Shown here: one piece after another, positions 7,440-61,718 of the stretch
Numbering within the stretch: position 1 is the first letter of the stretch
Layout: every line of letters begins with the position of its first letter
Origin: Rhizophagus irregularis
Lineage: Eukaryota > Glomeromycota > Glomeromycetes > Glomerales > Glomeraceae
Length of the DNA: 64,000 nt
Direction: 5' to 3'
NCBI RefSeq assembly: GCF_026210795.1
Contig: NC_089444.1
Location: forward strand, 1,230,501-1,294,500
Position numbers and translations under genes: made by a program
The notes under the pieces: model-generated
The model's input: only the letters and a program-made list of their open reading frames with translations
Database searches by the model: none
What the model was told of the DNA's origin: nothing

Positions 7440-9571
7440 TTAATTAACTTCATTTTTGTTTTGGCATTGTCGACCACCATGACATCTGCTTCCACAGTTA
7501 TTTCCCATTTTTCTACAATAGCACCTATTACTGTTGCAATTTCCTTTACAATTACATATTGTACCTGTGGTTGAACCTATATTTTGGAGACGTGCAGCCT
7601 CTCTAACAGTAATTGTACTTGTAGGTATTATTTCAAGTTCCGGAAATTGGTTAACACCAAGGGGGCTAATTTCTCCTGCTGAATAGAAGACATTAATGAC
7701 TCCAAATTGAGAACCTAACCGATATTGATTATTAATTTTTTCCAGGATTTTGCATGGGAGCATAGGTCGGTCAGTACCAAAGCGATCAATTTTTGGAACA
7801 GAGATTCGTACTAAATCTCCAACTTCATAGTTGTTTGGTCTTTTCTTTCCCTTATTCATTTGGTTAACCATCTTTTCAGTATAATTTTCAAGGTCTCGCC
7901 GAGCAGCTTCTCTTAATATTTTATGGTTTGTAACTCTCTCTTGTGATGAAGCTTCATTTGTAATGTCAATAAGAACGGGGTCAATAGGAATAGGCTGTTC
8001 TGACGTCTCATTCTCCCTGGTTTCAAAATATACTGCTTTATCTTGGTTTTGTGAAACCTAAAATAATGAAAGTTGATAAAATTATATAAAATATTGTTAA
8101 ATCATTTAATTAATTAAAAATTACACTAAAAATTTCATTAAAAATCATTGAAAATTTCGTTAAAAATCAATAAAAATTTTATTTAAAAATCAATAAAAAT
8201 TATTTAATAAAATTTACAATTAAAATTAATAAATTATAATATAAAACTAATAAAATTTACGATAAAAATTAATAAAAATTATAATAACTGAAAAATCAAA
8301 TAAGTAAAATAAAGATATTACCATATGAGATGATGCTGGAGAATCTAAAAAAAATAAAAAAAGCTATATTAAATATTAAGTTAAATATAATTAGTAATAA
8401 TAACAACTTATTTACCAAGTAAATTTTCATTAAAATCAAAATCATTATCTAAATTTTCATCTGAACTTTCAAAATCTGCAATTTTGATCATTTCAGGAAT
8501 GTTTTCTTCGTCATAAATGCCTCGGGCAAATAGTTCATCAATTAAACTACAATTTCCACGAGGTTTATCACCATAAACTAGTTCGTAAGGAGTTTTTTTA
8601 TGTGATCTACAAATGGAATTATTCATGGACAAGACTACTAAACGAAGCCCATATGACCAATCTTTTCTTCCGGAAGTTTCTCTCCACTTCCCCAATTTTT
8701 GTTGTAAAATACCATTTCCCCTTTCTACCAAACCTTGGGACTGCGGATGACGAGGCCTTCCATTAATAATTTTTACAGATGGCCAAAGGCCAACAAGTTC
8801 CTTTATTATTTCTGCGCAAAACTCCTTCCCATTATCAGATTGTAAAATGGTTGGAGGAGAGCCAATAAAAAAAAATAAATCAAATAAAAAGGCTGCCACT
8901 TCAATAGCTCGTTTGGAAGTTAGTGGTCTCGCCCAAGAGAATCTTGTAAAGTGATCACGAACGTGACAAATGTATTTGTAATCCCCGTCAGCGTCATATG
9001 ACAAATCAATCAAATCTATCTGTAGAAAAGAAATACTCTTAAATTAAAATGAATTTTTTCATAATCAATATAAATAATTTACCTGGACACGAGACAGATA
9101 GTTTTTTGCAATTATTGGTTTACTTGCTAAAGGATGGAAAGAAGGCTTTCGGGTGGCACATATAGTGCAGTTGTTGACAAACTTTTCAACAATTTCCTGT
9201 CTTACAAAACTCCAATTTTGTTTAACTGATTCCCATAACTGTTTCTGACCAGCGTGATTATCAATTTCAGCATGTATCCTGCATAATACTTCATACATAT
9301 TTTCAACAATTAAAACAGGTTTATTATCACGCTTGGCCATAATCCTATAATCTCCTGGAGTAATCTCTTCAAGGATAAAACGTTTTCTTGCCCACTCACG
9401 TGTAGTCTTTGTATCAATTTCTTTGTTGGAAGGATCAAGTAATATTTTTTTTATTCTTTCAAAAAGATTTTCATTAACTAAAGCTTTTTCTTGTCGACAT
9501 TCTGGCAGAGAGCTTATATAATTATTAACTATATTATCAAGTGTAGCCTTGCTAATAAAGTTGTATTCCAT
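7440..9571 (-). CDS. Integrase-type transposase (Ginger-like), four exons
   Basis: Model, minus strand: 9571-9083, 9019-8416, 8344-8322 and 8057-7440, all with GT/AG introns and continuous frame, giving 577 aa. Domains in order: N-terminal helical region; H2C2 zinc-binding domain (H100, H106, C135, C138) as in retroviral-type integrases; rve integrase core with D165/D168, D225 in QSDNGKEF and E262 in GLVERGN, a DDE triad with 36 residues between the second D and E; a region near 'YEVGDLVRI' resembling an integrase C-terminal barrel; and a terminal cysteine cluster (CNCKGNCNSNRCYC and following) similar to the CRC/tesmin type or KRAB-A-domain-containing-2-like proteins. It should cut and join the element ends in the nucleus. 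No stop or frameshift is seen. The 23-nt third exon is small but its phase fits exactly. Confidence 0.85.
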
Positions 9572-9684
9572 TAAAAAATTAAAAGATTAAATGTTGATAT
9601 AATTAAAATGTAAAAAGGACGTTAAAAGGTAAAGAGCAGAGCGTAGAGTAGATGGTGTAACAATAGTAATTTATTGATTATTAA

Positions 9685-9805
9685 TGCGTCAGATGACAGC
9701 CAACGCGCCTCAGTTGTCAATTATTAACTGACGCGCGTCAAGTGTTGATTTACATCTGACGCGCGTCAGCTGCATCTGACGCAAATCGACACTTGACGCA
9801 CAACA
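9685..9805 (-). repeat. Right 121-bp terminal inverted repeat
   Basis: Inverted copy of 7088-7208 with two mismatches. Palindromes TGACGCGCGTCA lie at 9729-9740 and 9757-9768. It lies about 110 bp upstream of the transposase start codon and so probably overlaps its promoter. Confidence 0.85.
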
Positions 9806-9919
9806 TATATGACTCTTTTGGTACAACCTCATAAGATCCAATTTTTTTTACAACTAGTTTCATTTCGTTAAATTTTTAATCAAATTTAAATTCCCTAAAT
9901 GTTAAGACCAATTACAGTA

Positions 9920-10463
9920 TTAAAGATATTGTCTCTTTCTAGGTCTTGAATCATCTTTTTTGTGTAGTTCAATAGTGTCAGAAATTGGATTGGATTCAAA
10001 AGTTTCACTACAATATTCACCCTCGTTACAAGAGGTGGTTTTAGTTCTGTTAGTGGAAGAAATGTCATTGCTTCTTTTCCCAGTGATTCGGTTGGCCTTC
10101 CCGACACTTTTGTAAGAGCTAAATCCATTTCTTTGTTCTCTTTGTCTGATAACGTTACATCGTTTGGTTTCTTAAAAAAAAATTTATTATTAACCAAATA
10201 TATACATAAAAATGAGATAGTAGAATGAATACAAATTCAATAATAGACTTACCAACTGGTCTGTTGTAAGAACTATTCTCAAGTTTCTGATCTGCCTGAT
10301 CTATGGACAATAATTCATTGTGTTCTTTGAAAGGCTTCCCAGCTTCTACCCACTCTTTGTATTTGGCCCAATTTACGGAAGACTTAAAACTTTTACTTGC
10401 TCTTTTTAGTTGTTCTTCAGTATATTGAGGAAACTGAGACCAAGAAAACTGAGTTTCAGACAT
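9920..10463 (-). CDS. Hypothetical protein, two exons, 153 aa
   Basis: Model: 10463-10253 and 10170-9920 with intron 10252-10171 (GTAAGT...TTTTAAG). The joined frame stays open to TAA at 9920-9922 (211 + 251 nt = 154 codons). The N-terminal half has an aromatic, charged stretch around 'WAKYKEWVEAGKPF'; the C-terminal half is Arg/Lys/Ser/Thr-rich and ends near RPRKRQYL, which could be a nuclear signal. No signal peptide or membrane segment. I do not recognise the family. It begins 115 bp outside the right end of the Ginger element, so it is not part of the transposon. Confidence 0.6.
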
Positions 10464-11240
10464 ATTTAAGAGTTTTTCTTAAAGGTTGATTATGAATATT
10501 ATGAATGTGACATCAATAATGTGATTTTTGTACTGGAAAATTTAATGTAATACAAACTAAGTAATCATGTATAGGAACACAAGAATAAATGAGTCAGCGT
10601 TACTACCATTGCACGATTTTCTTATATTAGTTAATCCTAGTTTTACGTAATTATTCTACGGTTTACCTAAAATGCATAGTCTAAGTTTCATCTCCAATAT
10701 CATTGGCCGGCAACTATTTTACACTGCGAGAAGTAGCGAATGCGAAACTTCAGTGTTAGAGGGAAAAAAAATTACACATTCTTTTGTTATACTGTGCATC
10801 AATCTCACATAACCGGTCTATGCTACGATTACGAACCTGAATTTATTGCTTGAAGTGAAGCAAGTAAGACAATATTCTGTTCCATTTTTATACCATTCGC
10901 CATGTAATCCGTAATTTTCATATTTCCATCGCAAATAGGACATGGTGAGCTTCACGGCTGTGGGTGATGCAAAATTATAATTATCAATCCCTCTAAAACT
11001 ATTTCAGAATTTCAAGTATGTGAAATGCTCTAACATGGATTTATAATTAATTCTGGATCGGGTCTAGCTTCGAATTTATAAAAAGATGGCCTTTTGATAA
11101 TTACCATGGTTCATGTCCAGTTTCTTTCTTATATATTTTATATAATTTGGATCGAAACTTATTTGTCAAAATACTTGGTAAACCAGTCAATTTAGCATAC
11201 CAATCCAGATATTCGGGGGTTAATATTTTATAGGATATGG
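10464..11240. other. Intergenic with one short protein-like relic
   Basis: About 11225-11065 on the minus strand reads as a coherent peptide fragment (includes KLTGLPSILTNKFRSKLYK) ending in TAA. It looks like the relic of a repeat-family gene that I cannot name. Nothing else is supported. Confidence 0.35.
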
Positions 11241-12091
11241 TTAAAGTTGCCTGCCAAAATTAGGGAGTTTCAGCATATCGAAATTGTCAAAACCTAAAAA
11301 TATTACGTTTCACATAATAACTTGGCATTCAATGATCGTGTTGGAATCGTCTCATAATGATGAGTCGAATGGTGGTTAGATCATCTTTCTATGATCACTG
11401 GATACCAAGATATTGAGCGAAACGTCAAAAATCGGCATTTTGTATTTTGCGATACTACGCTATTTGACGTTTCACATAATAACTCGGCATCCAATGATCG
11501 TAGAAAGATGCACCATAGCTCGTTAGAATCGTCTCATAACGACGAGTCGAATGGTGGTTAAATCATCTTTTTATGATCACTAGATGCCGAGATATTAAGC
11601 GAAACGTCAAAAATCGGCATTTGTATTTTGCGATATTGCACCGTTTGACGTTTCATGTAATAACTCAGCATCCAATAATCGTAGAAAGATGCACCATAAC
11701 TCATTGGAATCGTCTCATAATGACGAGTTGAATGGTGGTTAAATCATCTTTTTTACGATCACTGGATGCTGAGATAATAGGCGAAACATCAAATGGCGCA
11801 GTATCACAAAATACAAAATGCTAATTTTTCACGTTTCGCTCAATATCTCGGCATCCAGTAATTGTAGAAAGACGATCTAACCACCATTCGACTCGTTGTT
11901 ATGAGACGATTCCAACGAGCTATGGTGCATTTTTCTACGATCATTGGATGCCAAGTTATTACGTGAAACGTAATATTTTTAGGTTTCGACAATTTTGACA
12001 TGTCGAAACTATTTCAGCATTTTGGCATTTTGACAGGTTTTAGTTTTGACATTTTGACAATAGCCTGTAGAGTTTTGGCAGGCAACTTTAA
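11241..12091. mobile_element. Foldback element built from ~180-bp tandem modules
   Basis: Exact 19-bp inverted ends TTAAAGTTGCCTGCCAAAA (11241-11259) and its complement (12073-12091). Inside, a unit beginning CGTTTCACATAATAAC repeats directly at about 11310, 11469 and 11650, and then appears inverted from about 11830 to 11980. Each unit carries a core like GGAATCGTCTCATAA followed by GACGAGTCGAATGGTGG. No coding capacity. A target duplication is not clear. The core resembles the arms of the 2621-3123 foldback. Confidence 0.7.
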
Positions 12092-14717: not shown

Positions 14718-17700
14718 TTATTTGTCTACAATTATGCAATCATCCAAATCTTCAGTTATACCAGTAGAAGAACTTGCATGATAAGCTTGTGAATCTTCAC
14801 TTTCAAGAATTTCATTTAATTTTTTACTAGTAAAATTAAGTAAACGACTTGTATAGCATGCTTGTGAATGAGATTCAGTAGCAAGATTGTTATACATAAT
14901 TGGTGCATTTATAAATTCCATAACATTGCATTTTAATTCTTTATCAATATCTTTAACTTTTGCTCTATCTGGAAGAAAAATCCATTTCAAAATAATATTT
15001 AAAACTTCTCCAGCAGATGGCCTTTTTAAAGGATCTTCATTCCAACATTTTTTCATCAAATCTACATAACATTGTGGAGTATTTTCAATAATTTTAGGGC
15101 GTTCACCTTCACAAATACTTAAACTAAGTTGAAGATCATGCTTTCTATCATTAAATGGTGGCATTCCAGATGTAAATTCCCACATAATCATAGAAAAACT
15201 ATATATATCACTAGCTGGAGTATAAGATTTGCCTCTTAAAACTTCAGGTGCAATAAATGGTATAACACCATAAATATCATATTTTTTCAAAAATGATTTT
15301 ACAGGTCGACATAATCCTAAATCACTAATATAAACGGTTCCATCAATTCCATTTAAAATATTGCCATCATGAAAATCACAATGAATGAGATTTTGCTTAT
15401 GCATATTATTAAGTCCTAAAATAATTTCATATAGCATATATAACTTTTGATACCAATCATTTTTGACTATTCTTGTTAAGTTTCCCCTTAAATTACCTTT
15501 GCTTGCATAATCCATTACTACCATATATTTCAAAGTATCTGGATCTTTTGTAAATCCATAAAAATAAATAATATTACATGAATCTAAACAAATTTCATGA
15601 TAATTCCACTATAAAAAATAATAATCCATTAGTATAAGTAAATTATAATTTGAATTAAAAAAAATAAATAATTTACTATCATACTTCATTTAAAAATTCA
15701 TTTAAATTTTCATTTAAATTATTATGACATTTAAGAATTACTTCTTTATTATTATTTAACCAAATAGCTTTGTATATAATACCAAATCCACCTTCATCAA
15801 GATATTCAACATTTATAAATTTATTATAAGGAATCCATTTTAAATTCTTTTTAAGAATAAAGTCATCCAAAAGTGAATCTCCACTTTTTCCAAATCTATA
15901 AATTTAAATAAATAATTAAATTATATTAAAGTTTATATTAAACACTAAAAATTTAAGAATAAAATTAACATTTACTCTAAATTTTAAATAGGAATTTAAT
16001 ATAACGCATATCTTAAGTTTTTGTATAAATAAATACAATAATAACTTATATTTTACAACTTACCAACTAAAAATAACAGAAATTTTTAAATTAAAGAATT
16101 CAATTAATAAATAGTAAATATTATATAAAACATATAACAATAAAAATAACAAATAACCTACAAGCTATATAAATAATTTATTAAATAAAGATTTAAGTTA
16201 TTAATATTATATAAATTAATAATAATAAAATTAAATAAATAACTTACGCCCTATATTATTAAATAATTTATTAAATAAAGATTTAAGTTAGTAATATTAT
16301 ATAAACAAATAATAATAAAATTAAATAAATAACTTACGCCCTTTATTATTAAATAATTTTCAAATAAAAATTTTAGTTAGTTTAAATTATATGTGAATAT
16401 TATATAAATAAGTAATAATGGAATTAAATGAATAACTTACCCTCTATATTATTAAATAATTTTTTAAATAAAAATTTTAGTTAGTTTAAATTATATGGAA
16501 TATTATGTAAATAGGTAATAATATAATTAAATAATTAACTTACGCCCTATATTATTAAATAATTTTTTAAATAAAAAATTTTAGTTAATTTGAATATTAT
16601 ATAAATAAGTAATAATGGAATTAAATAATTAACTTATAACTTAACTTACCACCTAAAAGAAATTATAAAATAATTTTTTAAGTAAAAGATTTAGTTTTAA
16701 ATTATAAAATTATATGTAAATATTATTATATAAATAAGTAATAATAGAACTAAATAAATAACTTACACCCTATTAAATAAAGAATTTATTTATATTAAAT
16801 TATATACAAATATTATATAAATAAAGTAATAATAGCATTAAATAAATTACTTACGCCCTATGTTATTAAATAATTTTTCAAATAAAGAATTAAGTTAGTT
16901 TAAATTATTTGTGAATATTATATAAATAATTAGTAATAATAGAATTAAATAAATAATTTATGACTTACTAACTATAGGAAATGGAAAAATAATTTTTTAA
17001 TAATGGATTTAGTTCAAATTATGCAAATATTATATAAATAAGTTAAATAAACAACTTATAACTTACTAACTATAGGAAGTTGCAAAATAATTTTTTAATG
17101 ATGGGTTTAGTTCAAATATTATATAAATATGTAATAATAGAATTAAATAAATAACTTACATCCTATGTTATTAAATAATTGTTAAATAAAGAATTTAGTT
17201 AGTTTAAATTACATGTAAATATTAAATAAATAAGCAATAATAGAATTAAATAAATAACTTACGAGCTATATATTATTAAATAATTTTTTTAAATAGAGAA
17301 TTTAGTCAGTTTAAATTATATGTAAATATTATATAAATTAAATAAATAACTTATAACTTATCAATTACAAAATTAAATTATATGTTAATATTGCATGAAT
17401 AAGTAATAATAGAATTAAATAATTAACTTACGCCCTATATTGTTAAATAAATTTTAAATAAAAAATATAGTTAGTTTAAATTATATAATATTATATAAAT
17501 GGGTAATAATGGAATTAAAATTAAATAAATAACTTACACCCTATGTTATTAAGTAATTTTTAAATAAAAAATATAATTGGTTTAAAATATATGTAAATAT
17601 TTATAAATAAGTAATAATAGATAACTTACAAGCTATATTATTAAAATAAAGAATTTAATTAGTAAATATTATATAAATAAGTAATAATAGAATTAAATAA

Positions 17701-20700
17701 ATTACTTATAACTTACAATCTATTTAAATAAAGAATTTAGTTAGTTTAAATTATATGTAATTATTATATAAATAAATAATAATAGAATTAAATAAATAAC
17801 TTACGTCCTGTGTTATTAAATAAATAAAGAATACAGTTAGTTAAATTATATGTAGATATTATATAAATAAATAACTTACGTCCTATGTTATTAAATAATT
17901 TTTTAAATAAAGAATTTAGTTAGTTTAAATTATATGCAAACATTATATAATAATTAATAATAGAATAAAATAAATAACTTACGCCCTATGTTATTAAATA
18001 ATTTTTTAAATAAAGAATGTAGTTAGTTTAAACTATATGTGAATATTATATAGTAAATAAATAATAGTAACTTACGCCCTATGTTATTGATCAATTTTTA
18101 ATAAAAATGTAGTTAGTTTAAAGTATACTTAAATATTATATAAATAAGTAATAATAGAATTAAAATAAATAGCTTACAAACTATATTATTAAAGAATTTA
18201 GTTAGTTGAAATTGTATGTAAATATTATATAAATAATTCATAACAGAATTAAATAAATAACTTACGTCCTATATTATTAGATAATTTTTTAAATAAGAAT
18301 TTAATTATTTTAAATTATGTACAAGTATTATATAAATAAGAAATAATAATAGAATTAAATAAATAATTCATAACTTACCAACTAAAAGAAATTACAAAAT
18401 TATTTAAAATAAAGAATATAGTAGTTAGTTTAAATTATATGCAAATATTATATAATTAAGTAATATAATTAAATAAGTAACTCATAACTTACTAACTAAA
18501 AGAAATTACAAATTAATTTTTTGAATAAAGAATTTAGTTAATTTAAATATAAACAAATATTATATAAATTAGTAATATAAAATTAAATAAATAATTTATA
18601 ACTTACCAACTAAAAGAAATTATAAAATAATTTTTTAAAATAAAAAATTTAGTTAGTTTAAATAAGTAATAATAGGATTAAATAAATAACTTACATCCTA
18701 TATTATTAAATAATTTTTTCATATAAAAAAATTTTGTTAGTTTAAATTATATATAAGTATCATATAAATAAGCAATAATAGAATTAAATTATAACTTACC
18801 AACTTTCAAAATAATTTTTTAAATAAATAATTTAGTTAGTTTAAACAATATGTAATTATTATGTATATAGATAATAATAGAATATTAAATAACTTACGAG
18901 CTACATTATTAAATAATTTAAATAAAATTTTAGTTAGTTTAAATAAGTAATAATAGAATCAAACAAATAACTTACATCCTATTTTATTAAATAATTTTTA
19001 AATAAAAAATTTAGTTAGTTTAATTATATGTAAATATTATATAAGTAAGTAATAATAAAATTAAATAAAATAACTTACGGCCTATATTATTAAATAATTT
19101 TTTAAATAAAGCTTTGATTAATATAAATTATATTTAAGTATTATAAATACTAAGTAATAATAGAATTAAATAAATATCTAACAAGCTAAAATAATAAAAA
19201 TTTTTTAAATAAAGAATTTAGTTAGTTTAAATTACATGTAAATATTAAATAAATAAATAATAATAGAATAAATAACTTACGAACTATATTATTAAATAAT
19301 TTTTAAATGAAAATTATAGTTAGTTTAAATTATATTTAAATATTATATAAATAAGTAATAATAGAATTAAATAAAACACTTATAACTTACTAACTAAAAG
19401 AAATTACAAAATGATTTTTTGAGTAAAGGATTTATTTAGTTCAAATTATATTTAAATGTTATATAAATAGGTAATAATAAAATTAAATAAATAACTTACA
19501 CCCTATATTATTAAATAAGTTTTTAAATAAAGCGTTGATTATTAATATAAACTATATTTAAGTATTATATAAATACTAAGTAATAATAGAATTAAATGAA
19601 TAACTTACAGCCTATATTATTAAATAATTTATTTAGTTAATTTAATTTATATGTAGATATTATATAAATAAGTGATAAATAATAAAATTAAATAATAACT
19701 CATCACTTACCAACTAAAAAAATTGCCAAAAAATTTTTTAAATTATATTTAATCATTATATATATAAAGTAATATAGAATTAAATTTATAATTTATAACT
19801 TACCAGCTAAATAAATTACAAAATAAATTTTAAATAAAGTATTTAGTTAGTTTAAATTGTATATAAGTAATAATAGAATTAAATAAATAACTTACGCCCT
19901 ATATTATTAAAATAAAAAATTTAGTTAGTTTAAATTATATGTAAATATTATATAAATAAGTAACAATATAATTAAATAAATAATTTATAACTTACCAACT
20001 AAAAGAAATTACAAATTAATTTTTTAAATGAACAATTTAGTTAGTTTAAATTTATGTAAAATATTATATAATCGCGTAATAATGGAATCAATTAGATAAC
20101 CTATAACTTACAATCTATTTAAATAAAAAATTTAGTAAGTTTAAATTATATGTAAATATTATATAAAGTAATAATAAAATTAAATAAATAACTTATAACT
20201 TACCAACTAAAAGAAATTATGAAATAATTTTTTAAATAAAAAATTCATTTAGTTTAACTTATATAAATATTATGTAAATAAGTAATAATAGAATTAAACA
20301 AATAACTTACTCCCTATATTATTAGATAATTTTTTTTTAAATAAAGAATTTAATTAGTTTAAATTATATGTAAATATTACATAAATAAGTAATAGTAAAA
20401 TTAAATAAATAATTTATAACTTACTAACTAAAAGAAATTACAAATAATTTTTTAAATTAATAATTTAGTTAGTTTTAATTATATCATTTAAATAAGTAAT
20501 AATAAATAACTCACTTCCTATATTATTAAATAATTTTTTAAACAAAGAATTTAGTTGAATATTATATAAATAAGTATTAGAAAATAAATAACTCATAACT
20601 TACGATCTATTTAAATAAAAAATTTACTTAGTTTAAATTATATGTAAATATTATATAAATAATTAAATAAATAACTTACACTCTATATTATTAAATAATT

Positions 20701-22103
20701 TTTTAAATAAAAAAAAATATGGTTAAGTTTAATTATATGTAAATATTATAATCCAATTAAAATAAATAACTTACGAGCTATATTATTAAATAATTTTTAA
20801 ATAAAGAATTTAGTTAGTTTAATTATATGTAAATGTAGTATAAATGAGTAATAATAGAATTAAATAAATAACTTACGCTCTATATTATTAAATAGTTTTT
20901 TAAATTAGTTTAAATTATAGGTAAATATTATATAAATAATTAATAATCAAATTAAATAATTAGTTTACTAGCTATGTTATTAAATAATTTTTTAAATAAA
21001 GAATTTAATAAGTTTAAATATGTGAATAAGTATTATATAAATAAGCAAAATAAATAACTTACGCCCTATGTTATTAAATAATTTTTTAAATAAAGAATTT
21101 AGTTAGTTTAAATTTTATGTGAATATTATATAAGTAATAATAGCATTAAATAAATATCTTACACCCTATATATATGGTTATATAATATAAATAAAGAATT
21201 TAATAATTTAAATTTTATGTAAATATTGTATAAATAACTTATAACTTACGATCTATTTAAATAAAGAATTTGGTTAGTTTTAATTATATGTAAATAAGTA
21301 ATAGTTGAATTAAATAAATAACTTATAACTTACCAACTAAAAGAAATTACAGAATAGTTTTTTAAATAAAGAATTTAGTTTAAAGTTTAAACTATAAATA
21401 TAGTAGAAATATAGATATCATATAACTTACACCCTGTGGTATTATTAATTATTAATTAGTTAGATATAAATATAATAAAAATATTTACTGTAGATTAAAT
21501 ATATCACTTACAATCTATTTATTTAAATTAGGAATATAATTAGTTGAGTTACAAAATATTAAACAAATAAATGTAATATTGTAACTTACCATCTGAAATA
21601 TAATTAATATTTAAATAGTTATTTAATTAAAGAATTTAGTTATTTGAATATTATGTAAAATAAATAAAGTAAAGAAATAAAGTTTTAAATAAGTGATAAC
21701 TTACTAACTAGGATATTATACATCATTAGATAAATTATTTAGTTAAATGTAATATATAACAAAAAATAATAATTAATTCCATTATTATTTAATTATAAGA
21801 TAACATTAACTTACGAGCTAAATTGTTAATATAATTTATTTTATATGGTTAGTTTAAAGTATGGTTATGAATAGTATTTAAATTATTTACAAATAAAAAT
21901 TTAATATTCCAGCTTATTTGAATAATTTGATATACCTTTGGATTCCTCAGTGCTACTTCCTTCAAATTCTTCAGTACCACTTCCTTCAAATTCTTTAAAT
22001 ACTACTGGAAACTAGTTTTATTATATTGCAAATTTGGTTAAAAATTTTAGAATTCTAATTGTATTAAATGTTCATGCTATATATGATTTTACCTTCATCA
22101 CTA
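14718..22103 (-). CDS. Protein kinase gene with a 60-unit microexon array
   Basis: Minus strand. Exons in order: 22103-22093 (11 nt), 22004-21936 (69 nt, an acidic repeat with two copies of EEFEGS), then 59 candidate 3-nt exons from 21817 to 16064, a candidate 1-nt exon at 15976, exon 15895-15685, exon 15608-14718. The last two encode a tyrosine-kinase-like domain: glycine loop DEGGFGIIY, lysine in VILKCH, catalytic loop HCDFHDGN (Cys in place of Arg), DLG, then APE, and a Ser/Asp-rich tail ending at TAA 14718-14720. SGDSLLDDFI before the domain matches the usual start of Rhizophagus kinases. The 69-nt exon is open in one phase only; carrying that phase through 59 triplets and the single nucleotide enters the kinase exon in frame. 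The kinase is certain; the microexon splicing is a prediction. The first exon and start codon were not found. An alternative acceptor (AG at 15882-15881) could also restore frame. Confidence 0.7.
15976..21817 (-). repeat. Tandem intron array with 3-nt candidate exons
   Basis: Each unit (mean about 99 bp) reads, on the minus strand: AG acceptor, three bases, GT donor (almost always GTAAG), AT-rich spacer, often an ACTAAC-like branch motif, AT-rich run, next AG. Left coordinates of the triplets: 16064, 16162, 16248, 16338, 16441, 16544, 16650, 16767, 16855, 16969, 17067, 17160, 17263, 17432, 17538, 17630, 17717, 17815, 17880, 17983, 18076, 18178, 18266, 18379, 18493, 18607, 18695, 18800, 18898, 18976, 19079, 19183, 19281, 19391, 19500, 19609, 19711, 19804, 19896, 19996, 20112, 20204, 20311, 20425, 20515, 20604, 20680, 20775, 20877, 20969, 21063, 21163, 21250, 21334, 21431, 21512, 21590, 21715, 21815. 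One unit (17362) has lost both acceptor and donor. Unusual donors: GTAGGT (16162), GTTAGA (19183), GTGAGT (20515), GTAAAC (20969). There are 23 different triplets; GGC, TTG and TTA are commonest. Two unit types exist: acceptor ...AATATAG with G-rich or mixed triplets, and acceptor ...TTCTTTTAG with mostly TTG/TTA. Confidence 0.85.
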
Positions 22104-23360: not shown

Positions 23361-24312
23361 TACTATAATCTCCACTTTGGCCAAATGAAATCAACTTCAT
23401 TTATTAATTAAAAGTTGTTCAGGCATGTTGAAACCACTTGAATATTAATTTTCATGAATATAGGTATAGTGCTTAGAGAAAATTGCATTTCTTGATGATA
23501 TTAACTCTCTTTTCTGTTTTTTAATTTAGAGCGTAATATTTCCACTTTAGACAAATGAAATCAACTTTATTTATTAATTGAAAGTTGTTCAGGCAGGTTG
23601 AAACCACTTGAATATTAATTTTCATGAATGTAGGTGTAGTGCTCAGAGAAAATTGCATTTTTCTTGATGATATTAACTCTCTTTTTTGTGTTTTAATTTA
23701 GAGCGTAATATTTCCACTTTGGGCAAATGAAATCAACTTTATTTATTAATTGAAAGTTGTTCAGGCAGGTTGAAACTACTTGAATATTAATTTTCATGAA
23801 TGTAGGTGTAGTGCTTAGAGAAAATTGCATTTTTCTTGATGATATTAACTCTCTTTTCTGTTTTTTAATTTAGAGCGTAATATTTCCACTTTAGACAAAT
23901 GAAATCAACTTTATTTATTAAATGAAAGTTGTTCAGGCAGGTTGAAACCACTTGAATATTAATTTTCATGAATGTAGGTGTAGTGCTTAGAGAAAATTGC
24001 ATTTTTCTTGATGATATTAACTCTCTTTTCTGTTTTTTAATTTAGAGCGTAATATTTCCACTTTGGGCAAATGAAATCAACTTTATTTATTAAATGAAAG
24101 TTGTTCAGGCAGGTTGAAACCACTTGAATATTAATTTTCATGAATGTAGGTGTAGTGCTTAGAGAAAATTGCATTTTTCTTGATGATATTAACTCTCTTT
24201 TCTGTTTTTTAATTTAGAGCGTAATATTTCCACTTTGGGCAAATGAAATCAACTTTATTTATTAAATGAAAGTTGTTCAGGCAAGTTGAAACTACTTGAA
24301 TATTAGTTTTCA
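23361..24312. repeat. 172-bp tandem satellite, about 5.5 copies
   Basis: GAGCGTAATATTTCCACTTT recurs at 23529, 23701, 23873, 24045 and 24217 (the first and third with TAG variants after CACTT), exactly 172 bp apart each time. A partial copy precedes (from about 23361) and a truncated one ends near 24312. Copies are nearly identical apart from point changes. No coding frame. Confidence 0.9.
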
Positions 24313-24818
24313 TAAGATTTCATTTTTTTGTAGCTGTATTAACTTTAGAACACTTATTACAGCTTATGTCATTATTTTAAATTATAAAAATTAATTTATA
24401 TTATTGGCTAATTATAATCATATGATACTATTTGATTTAATAATTTAATAAAATATTATTATTTAAAATTAAATTCATATAAATGCAACTAATATTAATA
24501 ATTATAATTTAATCAGTAAATTCATTGACCAATTCTTGTAAATTCTATGCTCAAATTATGTAATTTCTTTGATCAAATCAATATAAATTCAGTATAAATT
24601 ATGGTCAATCATACACATGGTGCATTTTTGTGATATGGAATTGTGCATTTTCATATATCCTTATATATAGTTTAGATACATTATTTTTAAGAAAAAATTG
24701 TATAAATCTTATTAAAACATGATTTTTTATAGGGTCTAATTATAATAAAATTTTATTATTCAGTAACAATTCAATTTATTTATATCAAAGAATTTTTTTA
24801 ATTATAAATGTTATATTT

Positions 24819-43036: not shown

Positions 43037-43362
43037 ATGATGAAGAATACGCGGAAATTTTTAATGAATTTATAGACGAATATATAGTGGATTTCTTGTG
43101 TAAGGAGAACCTTAATGATAATAAAGAGAAAGGTTATCCTATGATCACTCAGATAAATGAGTTATTGAATTACTAGGCTGATATCAGAACGCTCATCCAC
43201 GCTTACTCAGGCACATATACCAGATTTCATCTAGACTCACAAAGAATCCCGACAAATAAGCATAAGCAAATTTGGAAAACCTTAGACATATACATACGTG
43301 AGCAGACCCATGAACTAAATCGTAAAAAAGCCTTCATTGCAATTAAAGCCCAAACTTTTTAA
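43012..43362 (+). pseudogene. Unknown coding block, first copy of a tandem triplication
   Basis: Frame from about 43012: an acidic stretch (DDNDEEYAEIFNEFIDEY), then YPMITQINELLNY, TAG (about 43174), ADIRTLIHAYSGTYTRFHL, then a Lys/Ile/Thr-rich helix to TAA near 43362. Apart from one TAG the frame is coherent, so it is probably the end of a gene, perhaps following the HMG-box relic. Family not recognised. The part from 43090 is repeated twice more downstream. Confidence 0.45.
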
Positions 43363-44066
43363 ATTTAAACACAACAACTCACCAAATGTACCAAATGGTA
43401 TAAATTAAATTAAATCCGATTTCTTGTGCAAGGAGAATAATAATCTAGAATAAAGAGAAAGGTTATCCTATGATCACTCAGATAAATGAGTTATTGAATT
43501 ACTAGGCTGATATCAGAACGCTCATCCACGCTTACTCAGGCACATATACCAGATTTCATCTAGACTCACAAAGAATCCCGACAAATAAGCACAAGCAAAT
43601 TTGGAAAACCTTAGACATATATATACGTGAGCAGACCCATGAACTAAATCGTAAAAAAGCCTTCATTGCAATTAAAGCCCAAACTTTTTAAATTTAAACA
43701 CAACAACTCACCAAATGTACCAAATGTTATAAATTAAATTAAATCCGATTTCTTGTGCAAGGAGAATAATAATCTAGAATAAAGAGAAAGGTTATCCTAT
43801 GATCACTCAGATAAATGAGTTATTAAATTACTAGGCTGATATCAGAACGCTCATCCACGCTTACTCAGGCACATATACCAGATTTCATCTAGACTCACAA
43901 AGAATCCCGACAAATAAGCACAAGCAAATCTGGAAAACCTTAGACATATACATACGTGAGCAGACCCATGAACTAAATCGTAAAAAAGCCTTCATTGCAA
44001 TTAAAGCCCAAACTTTTTAAATTTAAACACAATAACTCACCAAATGTACCAAATGTGATAAATAAA
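43090..44066 (+). repeat. Three tandem copies of a ~328-bp coding-derived unit
   Basis: Units start with GATTTCTTGTG at 43090, 43418 and 43747 and are almost identical over their whole length, including the TAG after INELLNY/INELLNY. Copies two and three share a variant of the first 45 bp (AATAATAATCTAGAATAAAG) that differs from copy one, so copy three most likely arose from copy two. Unit length is not a multiple of three. Confidence 0.9.
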
Positions 44067-44299
44067 TTCCTGTTGATTTTGTTATAGAACCTGGGTCTTG
44101 ACAATGATTTGGAGATGTTATTCTTTGGTTGACTTCACTTGAGTAGGTTAGTCTAGTCTAACGTTTCTATGCTGATATATTAGGAGTAATACTAATTTCT
44201 TGTTCAACATTTGTTGTCCTGATCTTGGAATAAATGGTATACCCTAGATAATTATTTGTTTAAAAAAAAAAATATTTATTTGAATGAATGAAAAAAAAT

Positions 44300-46839: not shown

Positions 46840-47663
46840 TTAAAAATATAATTTGAATTATTTGATTAGTATTAACGAAAATATTTATAAATTTTATCAA
46901 TACCAATGCAAATTGTTTGCAAATTTTATTAATATTAATGCAAATTAACTAACGTTACTATATTATTAATGAAATTAAAAGGAAAAATTTTTTATTTTAA
47001 CTAAAAGGACTATGTACAGTATATTACTAAATTACTAATCTTTTGAAATTAGAATTGCATTAAAAATTAACTAATCCAGTCAGGATTTTAGCTGTCAAGA
47101 TTTTAGATCACCAGGATTCTGTCAGGGATTTTGGGAGATCCCATTTTGAATGACACAATTTCGTTTTAAACTAATTTAAAACGAAACTTAAATACAAGCC
47201 CCTTGAAATATATTAATTTAGTTGTATTCCTCATGTGATCTCAAATTTCATATCCTTTTTTTAAATTCTGACGGCTGAAATTTCATCATTATTTAATTCT
47301 TAAACTTATGTCATAAACAAAGCACAGTCGCTTTCTTATCTAAGGAATCAACGACCGAAGATGTCTAAAATTTTTTTTTTTTTTAAACAAAAACGAACTT
47401 AGTTAAGTTATCCAACGCAGTAATACATAATTATTATTTAGTATGATTTTCTTTGATGACTTGATGTATAGCATGATGATAATCGTGATTTGCAGATTAA
47501 TAAAATTAATACGAAGAAAAAGAAAAGATGAAACAAAGTAAATCTTTTGGTTGTTGTTTTTTTCTTATAAAAGAAGTAACTGATTTAATCCGAATTCAAA
47601 AAAAAAAAAATTAATAAACATTTATTTTAATAAAAATTTAATTACAAGAAAATTTAAGTAATC

Positions 47664-48185
47664 ATGAGTCGAATTTTTATTTTTGCATTCGTTTTATTTG
47701 CTACGCTTTTTGCGGTCAATGCAGCACCACTTGAAAAAAGAGAAACTTCATTTCCACCATGTCCCGATTTGCCACCAGATGCAGTGGGACTCGATGTAAA
47801 AATGACACCTGATCCCTTCGCTCCTGGACAAGAAGAAACGTTCGACATTAAAGGAACATTGAAAAATGATATTATCACTGGAGATTTGCTTGGTATTGCA
47901 TTCATCAATCTTGCCGAGAAACATCCCGTAGGAGGTCCCCTCATTGTGGATATTTGTTCATTACCTGGAGTTACTTGTCCGATTAAAGCCGGAACTACAT
48001 TTTCTACAACGCAGAAATACATTGCACCAGGCGCAGAAGAGTTGCCTAAATCATACGCTATTGTAATTGCAATTGAACATGGAAATCCACCTGATAGTGT
48101 AGCATTAGCCTGTTCAGCTGCTATTTTTGGTGCTAGTGAACCTCCTGCTGTACCTGCAGATTTGGACTTTTGGGGTTTTTTATAA
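47664..48185 (+). CDS. Secreted ML-domain lipid-binding protein (NPC2/PG-PI transfer type)
   Basis: 173 aa, single exon. Signal peptide 1-20 (FIFAFVLFATLFAVNA), then APLEKR with a Kex2-type KR at 25-26. The rest matches the ML (MD-2-related lipid-recognition) family: start 'FPPCPDLPPDAVGLDVKMTP', the PFAPGQEETFDIKG strand with GTLKNDI, and the C-x6-C pair ICSLPGVTC-PIKAG typical of the family. Cysteines at 33, 98, 105 and 150; the usual six is reduced to four. Family members bind sterols or phospholipids in the secretory path or outside the cell. Kozak context AATCATGAG; a TATA-like TTATAAAAG lies at about 47565, roughly 100 bp upstream. No intron and no break. Rhizophagus has several such secreted proteins; a role in lipid exchange at the plant interface is speculation. 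Confidence 0.85.
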   Translation: MSRIFIFAFVLFATLFAVNAAPLEKRETSFPPCPDLPPDAVGLDVKMTPDPFAPGQEETFDIKGTLKNDIITGDLLGIAFINLAEKHPVGGPLIVDICSLPGVTCPIKAGTTFSTTQKYIAPGAEELPKSYAIVIAIEHGNPPDSVALACSAAIFGASEPPAVPADLDFWGFL

Positions 48186-59286: not shown

Positions 59287-59579
59287 TAAGTTTCAAATTT
59301 GGTTGTGTCATATGTCCTAAAAAAATTATGTAAACGTCATGTCACGTTAAAATTATTTATTGATTTTGGCGCAGTCAAACGTAGGACAGAGCGTCGTCTT
59401 ACTAAAATTGTTTTTTTTGCCTTGCATGAGCATGATTTACAAATTATACAAACTACACAAATTTATTTCGTAACACCAAATTTCTATAAATAGACAAAAT
59501 TCTTTTTTTTTCTTTAACATAAAATTAACTTACATTAAAAACTAACTACCGCAGTAAAAACTTTTCTGTATTTAAAACA

Positions 59580-61718
59580 ATGTCTAACATTACTGAATTT
59601 GAAGTTATTGATAATTCAAATGAGTGGATTGATTGGATTGAAGAATCTATTGCGAAAAATCAAATTAAATATTATGATTATAATCATTTTAATAGCATTA
59701 AAGAGGTTGGCTTTGGAAGTTTTGGAAAAGTTTATCGTGCAAATTGGAAAAGTTCTCATAGTTATTTAGCATTGAAATCTTTTTATAATTTCAATGTTAT
59801 GGCTAAAGAAATTGTTAATGAAGTAACTATTATATAGTATTGTCTTAATAATATGTTAACGTGAATTATGTTCCTAATTTATCATTTCTATTTTGGTTTA
59901 GCTTAAACTTCAGCGTGAAATTGATTTTCATGAAAATATAATTCGTTTTTATGGCATTACAACAGGTATTATAAATATTTAAAATATTATGATTTTGATA
60001 AAATGAAAAAATCTAAATAAATTTTATTTATTTTTTTTTCTTAAAAAAAGAAAATCAAAGCAACAATTCAAAGAAATATTTATTAGTGATGGAATATGCC
60101 AATAATGGTACCCTTCGAAGCTATTTAAACAGATGCTTTAAAGACCTTAACTGGAATAACAAATTAAATCTAGCATTTCAGTTAACTAATGCTATATCAT
60201 TTTTACACGATGAAGGGATTGTGCATCGTGATTTGGTAGGTTATTTACATTTTAACATTTTATTAAATTAATACAGTTTGTAAGTTTATTACCTAATATT
60301 ATTATCATTTTAATTAATAATAGCACTCCAATAACGTATTAATTCATAAGGATACCGTTAAATTAGCTGATTTTGGATTATCAAAAAGGATTGAAGAATC
60401 ATCTAATATTCAATCAAAATTATTTGGAATGGTTACTTATGTTGATCCACAAATATTTAATAGAAAAAGAGATAGCAACAATCAAGTTCAAATATATTCA
60501 TTAAATAAAAAGAGTGATGTTTACAGTATTGGTGTACTCTTATGGGAAATATCTAGTGGACTACCACCTTTTTGTAATGAACCATATGATCTTGGTTTGG
60601 CTATGGAAATATTACATGGTCTTAGAGAGAAACCCATTCCCAATACACCTGATGATTATATAAAAATATATACTGGTAAATAAAAATAAATTTAAATTAT
60701 GTTCATAATAATTGCTTTTATTAATTACAAGTCTATTTTATACTTAGACTGCTGGAATAATGAACCAGATAATCGTCCAACTATCAACCAAGTTGTTGCA
60801 AAATTAAATGCAATTATTTTAAAAGAAAATATCCAATTATCAAGTGAACAGCAGGATATTGTTGAAATTCCTAGAAATATGATTAATAGTTCATTGCATG
60901 GAGAAATGTCTCAACTTATTCAAAATTTTAATACTATGAATACAGAAGAAATGGATACTTCAATATCATCAAAAAATAATTTTGACATAATGGTTAATGA
61001 AATAATTATTCTTCTTGAAAATGTAACAACAGTAAGGAGAAAATATGAAATTGTTAATTATCTTAATAATCATAATATAACTTCAAAAGAAATTTATAAT
61101 TGGTTATTGAATAATCAGAATAATTTAAATTCTGTTCTTTTACTTGGAGTATTTAATCATTTTGGAGTTGAAATTAATGTTGATAAACAAAAAGCATTTG
61201 AATTATATCAAAATGCAGCAAATTCAGAAAATGTGCTTGGAATAATTAGCTTAGGATACTGTTATGAACTGGGAATTGGAACAAATGTTGATAATCAAAA
61301 AGCATTTGAACTATATCAAAAGGCAGCAAATTCAGGAAATGCACGTGGAATATATAGTCTAGGATATTGTTATCATTATGGAATTGGAATCAGTATTGAT
61401 CATCAAAAGGCATTTGTATTATATCAAAAGGCAGCAAATTTAGAAAATACACTTGGAATAAATAATTTAGGAGGCTGTTATGACTATGGAATTGGAACTA
61501 ATGTTGATAAACAAAAGGCATTTGAACTATATCAAAAGGCTGCAAATTTAGGAAATTATATAGCTCAATATAATCTTGCTGCTATGTATGAAAATGAATA
61601 TGGAGTTAAAAAGGACATAAATCAAGCAATTTATTGGTATACAAAATCTGCTGAACAAGGACATCAAAAAGCTCAAAACAGATTAAATATATTAAATATA
61701 CTTTGCAGAAACCCGTGA
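59580..61718 (+). CDS. Protein kinase with C-terminal Sel1 repeats
   Basis: Five exons: 59580-59822, 59902-59965, 60051-60235, 60324-60675, 60748-61718, all GT/AG with matching phases, giving 604 aa without breaks. Kinase domain about 40-310: glycine loop VGFGSFGKVY (G44, G46, G49), lysine K66 in LALKSF, HRDL at 161-164, DFG at 180-182, then a VDP in place of APE, DVYSIGVLLWEIS, and CWNNEPDNRPT. Residues about 412-590 hold five 36-residue Sel1 repeats (KAFELYQKAANSG, LGYCY, YGIGTNVD), an alpha-helical scaffold for protein contacts. The kinase-Sel1 pairing is greatly expanded in Rhizophagus. It should be a cytosolic signalling kinase; substrates unknown. All catalytic residues are present, so it is probably active. 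Confidence 0.9.

What the first reader, a model, noticed from the sequence alone, without database searches (positions are those of the whole stretch)
15976..21817. Array of 59 consecutive 3-nt candidate exons in a kinase gene
On the minus strand, 59 triplets are each framed exactly by an AG acceptor (mostly TAG) and a GT donor (55 of 59 GTAAG), spaced about 99 bp apart over 5.8 kb. Many units also carry an ACTAAC branch-point-like motif. Spacer sequences have diverged in length and base, yet the two splice sites and the 3-nt gap are preserved. That is not what a neutral satellite would show. The triplets themselves vary (23 kinds). I know of no described gene with so many successive 3-nt exons.
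Basis: partly seen in the sequence, partly recalled or inferred. Interest (0 to 1): 0.95.

Follow-up and report, generated by a model that had tools for sequence, protein, structure and literature searches.

The report
Fungal genes with dozens of one-codon exons
In a plant-symbiotic fungus, a family of kinase genes appears to spell part of its protein in three-letter exons, 59 in a row in this gene; no RNA has been examined yet, but stop codons are absent exactly at the joins where such splicing would otherwise create them.

Summary
On the minus strand (21817-16064) 59 triplets lie between an AG acceptor and a GT donor; 55 donors are GTAAG. The genome is that of Rhizophagus irregularis. Arrays of this design recur across it: 2,262 unit-pattern matches against 16 in controls. 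I compared 17 arrays.

The key test needs no RNA. Flanking exons imply that triplets are read in phase 1 (last base of one triplet plus two of the next). In 642 adjacent junctions there is no phase-1 stop: 0 of 168 T-ending triplets precede AA/AG/GA, against 102 of 474 others. The avoidance exists only for the immediate next triplet, not for reversed order or lags 2-8. A genome-wide count for TAA/TAG agrees: 3 of 576 against 334 of 1,552. A 1-nt exon after the array restores the kinase frame in all 15 genes with a clean kinase exon. Triplets differ 5 to 14 times more than their introns between similar units.

Best reading: genuine 3-nt exons, spliced in order and translated, forming a variable segment before the kinase domain. 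No transcript was available to me.

The parts
22093..22098 (-). Proposed first coding exon (ATGAAG). The start codon used by sister genes lies just upstream and reads ATA here.
   Evidence: Sister-gene motif TAGTAATGGCTCNNAGTAATGATAAAGGTAA, up to 3 mismatches, has 62 places in the genome. The start in this copy is the least certain part of the model.
21936..22011 (-). Exon 2 (76 nt; 69 nt if the CAG acceptor is used and it starts at 22004), acidic E/F/S/G-rich peptide, leaves one base (G) for the next codon
   Evidence: In 12 of 16 sister genes an exon 2 was found, with a length divisible by three (24-138 nt); in the other four the script found none.
16064..21817 (-). Array of 59 three-nucleotide exons separated by introns. 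First bases of the triplets: 21817 21707 21592 21514 21433 21336 21252 21165 21065 20971 20879 20777 20682 20606 20517 20427 20313 20206 20114 19998 19898 19806 19713 19611 19502 19393 19283 19185 19081 18978 18900 18802 18697 18609 18495 18381 18268 18180 18078 17985 17882 17807 17719 17632 17540 17434 17265 17162 17069 16971 16857 16769 16652 16546 16443 16340 16250 16164 16066
   Evidence: sites; 0 phase-1 stops in 58 junctions, shuffle mean 2.8, P(0)=0.027 for this array alone; family-wide tests.
17355..17370 (-). Degenerate unit: acceptor and triplet lost, donor-like GATAAG; it merges two introns into one of 166 nt without changing the frame
15976..15976 (-). One-nucleotide exon (A) that shifts the frame from phase 1 to phase 2 for the kinase exon
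   Evidence: without it the ORF breaks; a 1-nt AG-N-GTRA site upstream of the kinase exon in 15 of 15 genes with a clean kinase exon. Genome pattern of this site, up to 3 mismatches: 31 places, controls 0.
15685..15895 (-). First kinase exon (FGKSGDSLLDDFILKKNLKWIPYNKF...)
   Evidence: Pfam kinase match in the spliced product.
15609..15684 (-). Ordinary 76-nt intron (GTATGA...TATAG)
14718..15608 (-). Last kinase exon with stop codon TAA
   Evidence: PF07714 E=1.2e-39, PF00069 E=1.6e-37 on the 453-aa product.

Best explanation
The array is a run of 59 genuine exons of three nucleotides, plus one of one nucleotide, in a kinase gene of Rhizophagus irregularis, and it belongs to a large family of such genes. 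Each unit is a complete small U2-type intron (GTAAG, ACTAAC, TAG; mean 95 nt) followed by one triplet. The spliceosome removes the introns by intron definition and joins the triplets in genomic order; because a 3-nt exon can hardly hold the acceptor and donor machineries at once, the introns must be removed one after another (inferred). Each step adds exactly one codon's length, read in phase 1. The terminal 1-nt exon then sets the frame of the kinase domain. Units multiply by tandem duplication, so the encoded segment can grow, shrink and mutate without breaking the frame. The result is a segment of about 20 to 90 residues, variable in length and sequence, between an acidic N-terminus and the kinase domain. 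Shown from sequence: unit structure, gap of 3, phase, order, frame restoration, fast triplet change. Inferred: actual splicing, order of intron removal, role of the segment.
For: Phase and order: 17 arrays, 642 adjacent junctions, 0 phase-1 stops; T-ending triplets followed by AA/AG/GA 0 of 168, others 102 of 474, Fisher p=1.8e-15 (junctions treated as independent, although units are duplicates of each other). Counting each distinct triplet pair once leaves p=5.7e-7. The same test at lags -6 to -1 and +2 to +8 shows no avoidance (lag -1: 28 of 164; lag +2: 19 of 141). Within-array shuffles of 16 arrays: mean 18.6 stops, minimum 8 in 2000; phase 2 has 81 stops, shuffle mean 72.5. ATT before AA/AG/GA 0 of 55, ATC 16 of 68. 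Genome-wide, these 17 arrays included, T followed by AA/AG: 3 of 576; non-T 334 of 1552; p=1e-45. The phase was written down before the count, though after the triplet lists were in view. Frame: exon 2 leaves one base in 12 sister genes; in 15 of 17 genes the first kinase exon has an open acceptor one base before its first codon, at the same place in 14; the 1-nt exon supplies the difference in all 15. Complete ORFs: 453 aa in the window, 468 aa in L051 with 27 triplets and array introns of 63-117 nt. Array ends are conserved: 13 of 17 start CTC, 3 CTT; 10 of 17 end CTT-TTG. In 97 non-overlapping unit pairs whose introns differ by 2.8% per site, triplet positions differ in 20, 14 and 38 of 97.
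Against: No RNA evidence was available. No public protein contains the window's array-encoded peptide, and the closest annotated family proteins appear to skip the array or read into introns (P0001, P0002, P0016). In the window copy the sister genes' start codon is lost, so this copy's 5' end is uncertain and its array alone gives only P=0.027. In two of 17 genes the kinase exon was not found or is interrupted (L032, L044). Three genome-wide T-to-AR junctions exist. The genome-wide TGA count was not obtained (service busy). The encoded peptide has no homologue, so its function is unsupported.
Confidence: 0.93

Rival explanations
1. Intronic satellite: the array is one long intron whose repeat unit merely looks like splice sites, and the whole array is removed or never transcribed.
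For: Units are clearly tandem-duplicated and satellite-like; public gene models appear to skip the array.
Against: A satellite has no reason to avoid T|AA, T|AG and T|GA between neighbouring triplets and only in that order, genome-wide for T|AA and T|AG. Direct joining of exon 2 to the kinase exon breaks the frame. The AG-NNN-GT gap is kept in 510 of 526 while the bases inside it change most.
Confidence: 0.04
2. Recursive splicing: the AG-NNN-GT sites are ratchet points that help remove a long intron stepwise, and the triplets are finally discarded.
For: Acceptor and donor are almost juxtaposed, as at Drosophila ratchet points (start of the abstract of PMC8605326); the arrays span about 2 to 11 kb.
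Against: Ratchet points are described as juxtaposed acceptor and donor; here three bases lie between them in 510 of 526 and their junctions behave as codons. Discarded triplets would not avoid stops.
Confidence: 0.02
3. Alternative microexons: triplets are included in variable subsets, giving a very large number of isoforms that differ by single residues.
For: Every triplet can be skipped without a frameshift, provided the 1-nt exon is kept (inference).
Against: If skipping were common, stops should also be avoided between triplets two apart; they are not (lag +2: 19 of 141 T-ending against 72 of 426 others, p=0.36). This favours constitutive inclusion, with skipping at most a minor outcome.
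Confidence: 0.1
4. The window copy itself is a decaying member whose array is no longer functional, although sister genes use theirs.
For: Start codon of sister genes lost, exon 2 one base longer with the sister acceptor, one unit degenerate.
Against: A nearby ATG or a 7-nt shift of the exon 2 acceptor restores the frame; no stop in 58 junctions; kinase exons open.
Confidence: 0.25

Closest known systems
Micro-exon genes (MEGs) of flatworms
   Same: Runs of consecutive exons whose lengths are multiples of three, hard to annotate and to align (passages of PMC7653826 read).
   Different: MEG micro-exons are defined there as under 70 nt; here nearly every array exon is 3 nt, there are about 20 to 90 in a row, each with a similar tandemly repeated intron, in a fungus, in front of a kinase domain.
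Bicycle and megacycle genes of aphids
   Same: Rapidly evolving genes with very many small internal exons, almost all in one phase; one megacycle gene has more than 100 microexons (passages of PMC9168663 read).
   Different: Its protein is about 2000 aa, so the exons encode many residues each; the passages mention no 3-nt exons and no array of repeated introns.
Isolated 3-nt and 1-nt exons (Drosophila homothorax 3-bp exon; Arabidopsis APC11 1-nt exon; Fusarium CYP621A 1-nt exon)
   Same: Show that spliceosomes can use exons of 3 and of 1 nt (PMC4674806 abstract and outline; PMC7392893 and PMC12940212 seen in listing only).
   Different: Single tiny exons, as far as seen, not dozens in series.
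Recursive-splicing ratchet points
   Same: Acceptor directly followed by a donor, stepwise processing of a long intron (PMC8605326, start of abstract in listing).
   Different: Acceptor and donor juxtaposed, no 3-nt exon kept between them.
Stwintrons and other complex introns of fungi
   Same: Several spliceosomal introns in close succession in fungal genes (listing).
   Different: Stwintrons are nested introns sharing interrupted splice sites; here introns are side by side with 3 nt between them.

Membership tests
Micro-exon gene (criteria in PMC7653826) | At least seven exons, at least half of them micro-exons (<70 nt, divisible by three) | tested here: met
   Predicted window gene: 59 of 64 exons are 3 nt. 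Met by the predicted structure only.
[quoted passage not shown]
   Predicted: 59 consecutive in the window, 27 in L051, about 90 in the gene at G000:C4:820000-835800.
Micro-exon gene | Exons present in transcripts | not testable with these tools
   No RNA data here; indirect evidence from stop avoidance.
Neutral satellite DNA | Divergence spread evenly over the repeat unit | tested here: not met
   In 487 pairs with introns at least 95% identical, triplet positions differ in 0.26/0.12/0.51 of pairs; intron positions mostly 0.00-0.08, at most 0.19. AG and GT columns there are held by the way units were chosen; the unbiased figure is 510 of 526 gaps kept.
Recursive-splicing ratchet point | Acceptor and donor directly juxtaposed (AG|GT) | tested here: not met
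   Gap of 3 in 510 of 526; gap 0 in 28, below the shuffle mean of 34.6.
Protein-coding exon array | Absence of stop codons in the phase given by the flanking exons | tested here: met
   0 of 642 junctions; 89 stops in phase 2.
Kinase family of Rhizophagus | Kinase domain | tested here: met

The most novel reading that the evidence does not exclude
A fungus builds a hypervariable protein segment one codon's length per exon: tens of genes carry arrays of about 20 to 90 three-nucleotide exons, spliced in strict order through similar repeated introns, with a 1-nt exon as frame adapter. The repeated introns act as a frame-safe scaffold for rapid evolution: unit duplication changes length by whole residues, and the triplets diversify about 5 to 14 times faster than the introns around them, as expected if variation in this segment is selected.
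Probability: 0.8. Interest if true: 0.97.

Novelty: new variant of a known kind. Interest (0 to 1): 0.95.

Why it matters
A 3-nt exon is near the edge of what spliceosomes are known to handle; here it would be done dozens of times in one transcript and in many genes. It would give splicing research a natural system for strictly sequential intron removal without exon definition. It would show a way for proteins to evolve residue by residue without frameshifts, in a symbiont of land plants. It would also mean that current models of this Rhizophagus kinase family are wrong at the N-terminus. The question is directly testable with long RNA reads that already exist: Manley et al. 2023 (PMC10234402, passages read) describe Nanopore RNA reads for this fungus; one mapping step reported there used a maximum intron length of 3000, shorter than this array.

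Tried and rejected
Neutral satellite, recursive splicing and alternative-inclusion readings were tested and are set out as rivals.

Codon-phase tests: phase 0 cannot be tested by shuffling triplets, because it does not depend on their order; phase 2 is excluded by 89 stops in 642 junctions. The window array on its own is too short to be decisive (P=0.027).

Circularity found on checking: units were chosen by splice-site scores, so their AG and GT columns are conserved by construction; I rely for that point. One search looked only for kinase-exon acceptors in the expected phase; one search repeats it for any phase. The acceptor farthest upstream with an open frame has the expected phase in 14 of the 15 genes; in L047 a weaker one lies farther out. 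Over the 16 genes scanned there, 34 open acceptors have one base before the first codon, 3 have none and 10 have two, most of the latter inside the exon.

Public proteins as hidden transcript evidence: 64 relatives of the L051 product were retrieved and read. None carries the window's peptide (four candidates, none scored). P0015 has 48 residues between an N-terminal match at G000:C14:3080987-3081067 and a kinase match at C14:3085610-3085720, and none of the 150 scored matches (of 1,018 candidates) covers residues 29-72, so that model may be pieced together from very short exons; its composition (seven Met; none among 549 phase-1 codons) does not fit phase 1, and I could not read the DNA, so I do not count it as evidence. 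No other protein shares the stretch. P0025 and P0049 (R. diaphanus) have similar unexplained stretches.

Rows dropped: locus L034 (one unit only) was left out of the array set; about six further places visible in the capped list were not fetched; junctions with introns over 125 nt were left out of the stop counts; units scoring under 10 were dropped but kept, whose chain model misses 3 of the window's 59 units. Intron divergence is the selection criterion for pairs, so it is biased low; in the most diverged bin (16.9%) the triplets still differ more (34, 28, 70%).

Genome-wide TGA-type junction counts were requested repeatedly and never answered. No structure prediction was tried, because the spliced protein is not a letter-for-letter translation of the DNA. 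Literature searches for consecutive 3-nt exons or for microexons in arbuscular mycorrhizal fungi showed no such description in the rows listed; the lists are capped and cover open-licence PMC papers only. Recalled, from no call: the ACTAAC branch-point name, intron versus exon definition, U1 and U2AF.
Full report
WHERE IT LIES. The window is bases 1230501-1294500 of contig 16 of a 146.7-Mb genome in 32 contigs. The closest public proteins of the sister gene product L051 are from Rhizophagus irregularis, with R. diaphanus and R. clarus behind them, and one of them (P0008) sits on a contig of exactly the length of contig 4 of this assembly. The organism is therefore R. irregularis, an arbuscular mycorrhizal fungus.

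A scan gives exactly 59 AG-NNN-GT units on the minus strand, 55 with GTAAG, 23 kinds of triplet. Shuffling the region gives 0.035 sites on average against 55 with a GTAAG donor. The region has 12-14% G+C and is a diverged tandem repeat.

IT IS A FAMILY. The pattern TTTAATAATATAG-NNN-GTAAGTTA with up to two mismatches occurs 2,262 times in the genome against 16 for the reversed control. The exon 1 motif occurs 62 times and the terminal 1-nt-exon motif 31 times (up to three mismatches), controls zero. I took 20 stretches at 16 of about 22 places visible in the capped list. Fifteen of the 16 held arrays; one (L034) held a single unit and was left out. With the window and L051 this makes 17 arrays. 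They share one design: a short first exon, an acidic exon 2, an array, a 1-nt exon, then the kinase exons. Of the 17 arrays 13 start with CTC and 3 with CTT; ATT followed by GGT or GGC comes within five units in 14; 10 end CTT-TTG. The largest one read completely, G000:C4:820000-835800, has about 90 units over 10.8 kb.

THE GAP IS HELD AT THREE. To avoid circular counting I built a profile from intron interiors only and looked at what lies between neighbouring hits. Of 526 neighbouring pairs, 510 have AG-NNN-GT; shuffles give 27.8. At least four of the 16 misses are only cut by the hit edge. Among 764 exons in the chain model of 17 arrays, 727 are 3 nt, 15 are 1 nt, 8 are 6 nt and 5 are 9 nt; nine have other lengths, six of them low-scoring. 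The 690 introns of at most 145 nt have mean 95 and s.d. 12.3, range 55 to 142.

PHASE AND ORDER. Exon 2 leaves one base (12 of 16 sister genes; none found in the other four). In 15 of 17 genes the kinase exon has an open acceptor one base before its first codon, in 14 of them at the same place. So triplets, if used, must be read in phase 1: the last base of one plus the first two of the next. This was written down before the count, with the triplet lists already in view. In 16 arrays with 523 junctions there are no phase-1 stops; within-array shuffles give 18.6 on average, never below 8 in 2000, while phase 2 has 81. With 17 arrays and 642 junctions the count is still zero: T-ending triplets are followed by AA, AG or GA in 0 of 168 cases, other triplets in 102 of 474. 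These p-values treat junctions as independent, which duplicated units are not; counting each distinct triplet pair once leaves p=5.7e-7. ATT and ATC, which differ only in the last base, behave as different words: 0 of 55 against 16 of 68.

THE LAG TEST. The decisive control is distance. The avoidance is seen at lag +1 (p=1.8e-15) and at no other lag from -6 to +8. In reversed order (lag -1) it is 28 of 164; at lag +2 it is 19 of 141 against 72 of 426. Composition, unit type and local homogeneity should act alike in both directions and over several units; joining each triplet to its next neighbour and translating the result explains a signal at +1 alone. The lack of a signal at +2 also suggests that skipping is not the rule.

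GENOME-WIDE. With an exact pattern for two neighbouring units (intron 71-101 nt), T-ending triplets precede A-A or A-G triplets in 3 of 576 cases, others in 334 of 1,552; p=1e-45; reversed controls 0, 0, 0 and 3. These counts include the 17 arrays. Counts for the TGA type were not obtained.

THE FRAME ADAPTER. In the window, exon 2 + 59 triplets + A + kinase exons give one open frame of 453 aa; leaving out the A, or joining exon 2 straight to the kinase exon, ends in a premature stop. Joining exon 2 to the A with any number of triplets would also keep the frame. A 1-nt site lies upstream of the kinase exon in all 15 genes with a clean kinase exon. Its base is A in 12, G in 2 and C in 1, so its length is kept more strictly than its letter. 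In six of these genes a second 1-nt site (T) follows, which would break the frame if used. In L051 every element is intact: 27 triplets, array introns of 63-117 nt, a 468-aa product. Pfam finds a kinase domain in the window product.

HOW TRIPLETS EVOLVE. In an alignment of 260 of 528 units the three triplet columns agree with the consensus in 27-59%, the splice-site columns in 93-100%, the intron interior in 39-92%; units were chosen by splice-site score, so the splice-site figure is biased. Among 487 pairs of units with introns at least 95% identical, the triplet positions differ in 26, 12 and 51%; intron positions mostly in 0-8%, at most 19%. In 97 non-overlapping pairs the triplets differ in 20, 14 and 38 cases while introns differ by 2.8% per site. 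Of 250 third-base differences 77 are C/T, so CpG decay is not the main cause. In phase 1 the second triplet base is the wobble position, and it changes least. This points to selection for change in the peptide, or to homogenisation of introns with triplets kept apart by selection. It is suggestive, because pairs were chosen by intron identity.

MECHANISM. Shown: the units have intron signals and a 3-nt gap, and neighbouring triplets behave as joined and translated in order. Inferred: the introns are recognised singly (intron definition), since U1 and U2AF can hardly both sit on 3 nt, so removal must proceed stepwise along the array; the growing upstream exon then serves each next donor. The peptide between the acidic N-terminus and the kinase domain would be a length-variable linker or recognition surface. 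No homologue of it was found, so its role is open.

THE WINDOW COPY. The start codon of the sister genes is ATA here and exon 2 is one base longer with the sister acceptor; an ATG in the first exon, or the CAG acceptor seven bases on, restores the frame. One unit is degenerate. This copy may be young, altered or in decay; the family conclusion does not rest on it.

COMPARISON WITH WHAT IS KNOWN. Single exons of 3 nt and 1 nt are documented (PMC4674806, abstract; PMC7392893 and PMC12940212, listing). Flatworm micro-exon genes are the nearest kind; by the criteria in PMC7653826 (passages) the predicted gene would qualify, but exon size, number and the repeated-intron design are outside what those passages describe. 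Aphid megacycle genes have more than 100 microexons (PMC9168663, passages), not 3-nt ones as far as I saw. Searches for consecutive 3-nt exons or microexons in these fungi showed nothing comparable in the rows listed.

WHAT IS MISSING. No RNA was examined. The public gene models closest to L051 appear to skip the array. Long RNA reads exist (PMC10234402, passages), but one mapping step reported there allowed introns of at most 3000, so reads across these arrays may have been clipped; this is an inference, not a check.

I recounted against the calls and added. Mended: intron range of L051, number of Met in P0015, array start and end counts, number of matching contigs, and the statement that AG and GT are fixed.

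Noticed in passing
G000:C4:820000-835800 (L052, L048, L053), minus strand: The largest array read: about 90 units over 10.8 kb with unusually diverse triplets and a kinase exon after a 1-nt site; 79 junctions, no phase-1 stop.
   Followed up: yes
G000:C14:3080987-3085720; public protein P0015: A public R. irregularis gene model has 48 residues between two matches 4.5 kb apart, of which residues 29-72 are covered by none of 150 scored genome matches, as if assembled from very short exons in an array.
   Followed up: partly
L045 (introns of 259 and 239 nt): Two introns of one array carry insertions of similar sequence (with TGATGATCACC) that leave the AG-NNN-GT sites on both sides intact: mobile-element-like insertions tolerated inside the small introns.
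   Followed up: no
L037, L039, L040, L042, L045, L051, just downstream of the 1-nt exon: A second site of the form AG-T-GTAA follows the 1-nt exon in six genes; used as an exon it would break the frame.
   Followed up: no
public protein P0054: The N-terminal exon pair of this kinase family is fused to a DUF8211 domain instead of a kinase in one R. irregularis model.
   Followed up: no
window 23371-24313: Tandem array of a 172-bp unit, 5.5 copies, 96% matches, upstream of the kinase gene.
   Followed up: no
window 43090-44068 and 11341-11793: Further tandem repeats: 329-bp unit x 3.0 (97%) and 182-bp unit x 2.5 (88%).
   Followed up: no
window 7440-10478, minus strand: Integrase-core ORF (PF00665) next to other ORFs, looking like a transposable element.
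   Followed up: no
window 59529-61718, plus strand: Kinase-like ORFs followed by Sel1 repeats (PF08238, E=2.1e-47) with a 108-bp internal repeat.
   Followed up: no
window 47658-48185, plus strand: Open frame with an ML domain (PF02221) and a hydrophobic start.
   Followed up: no
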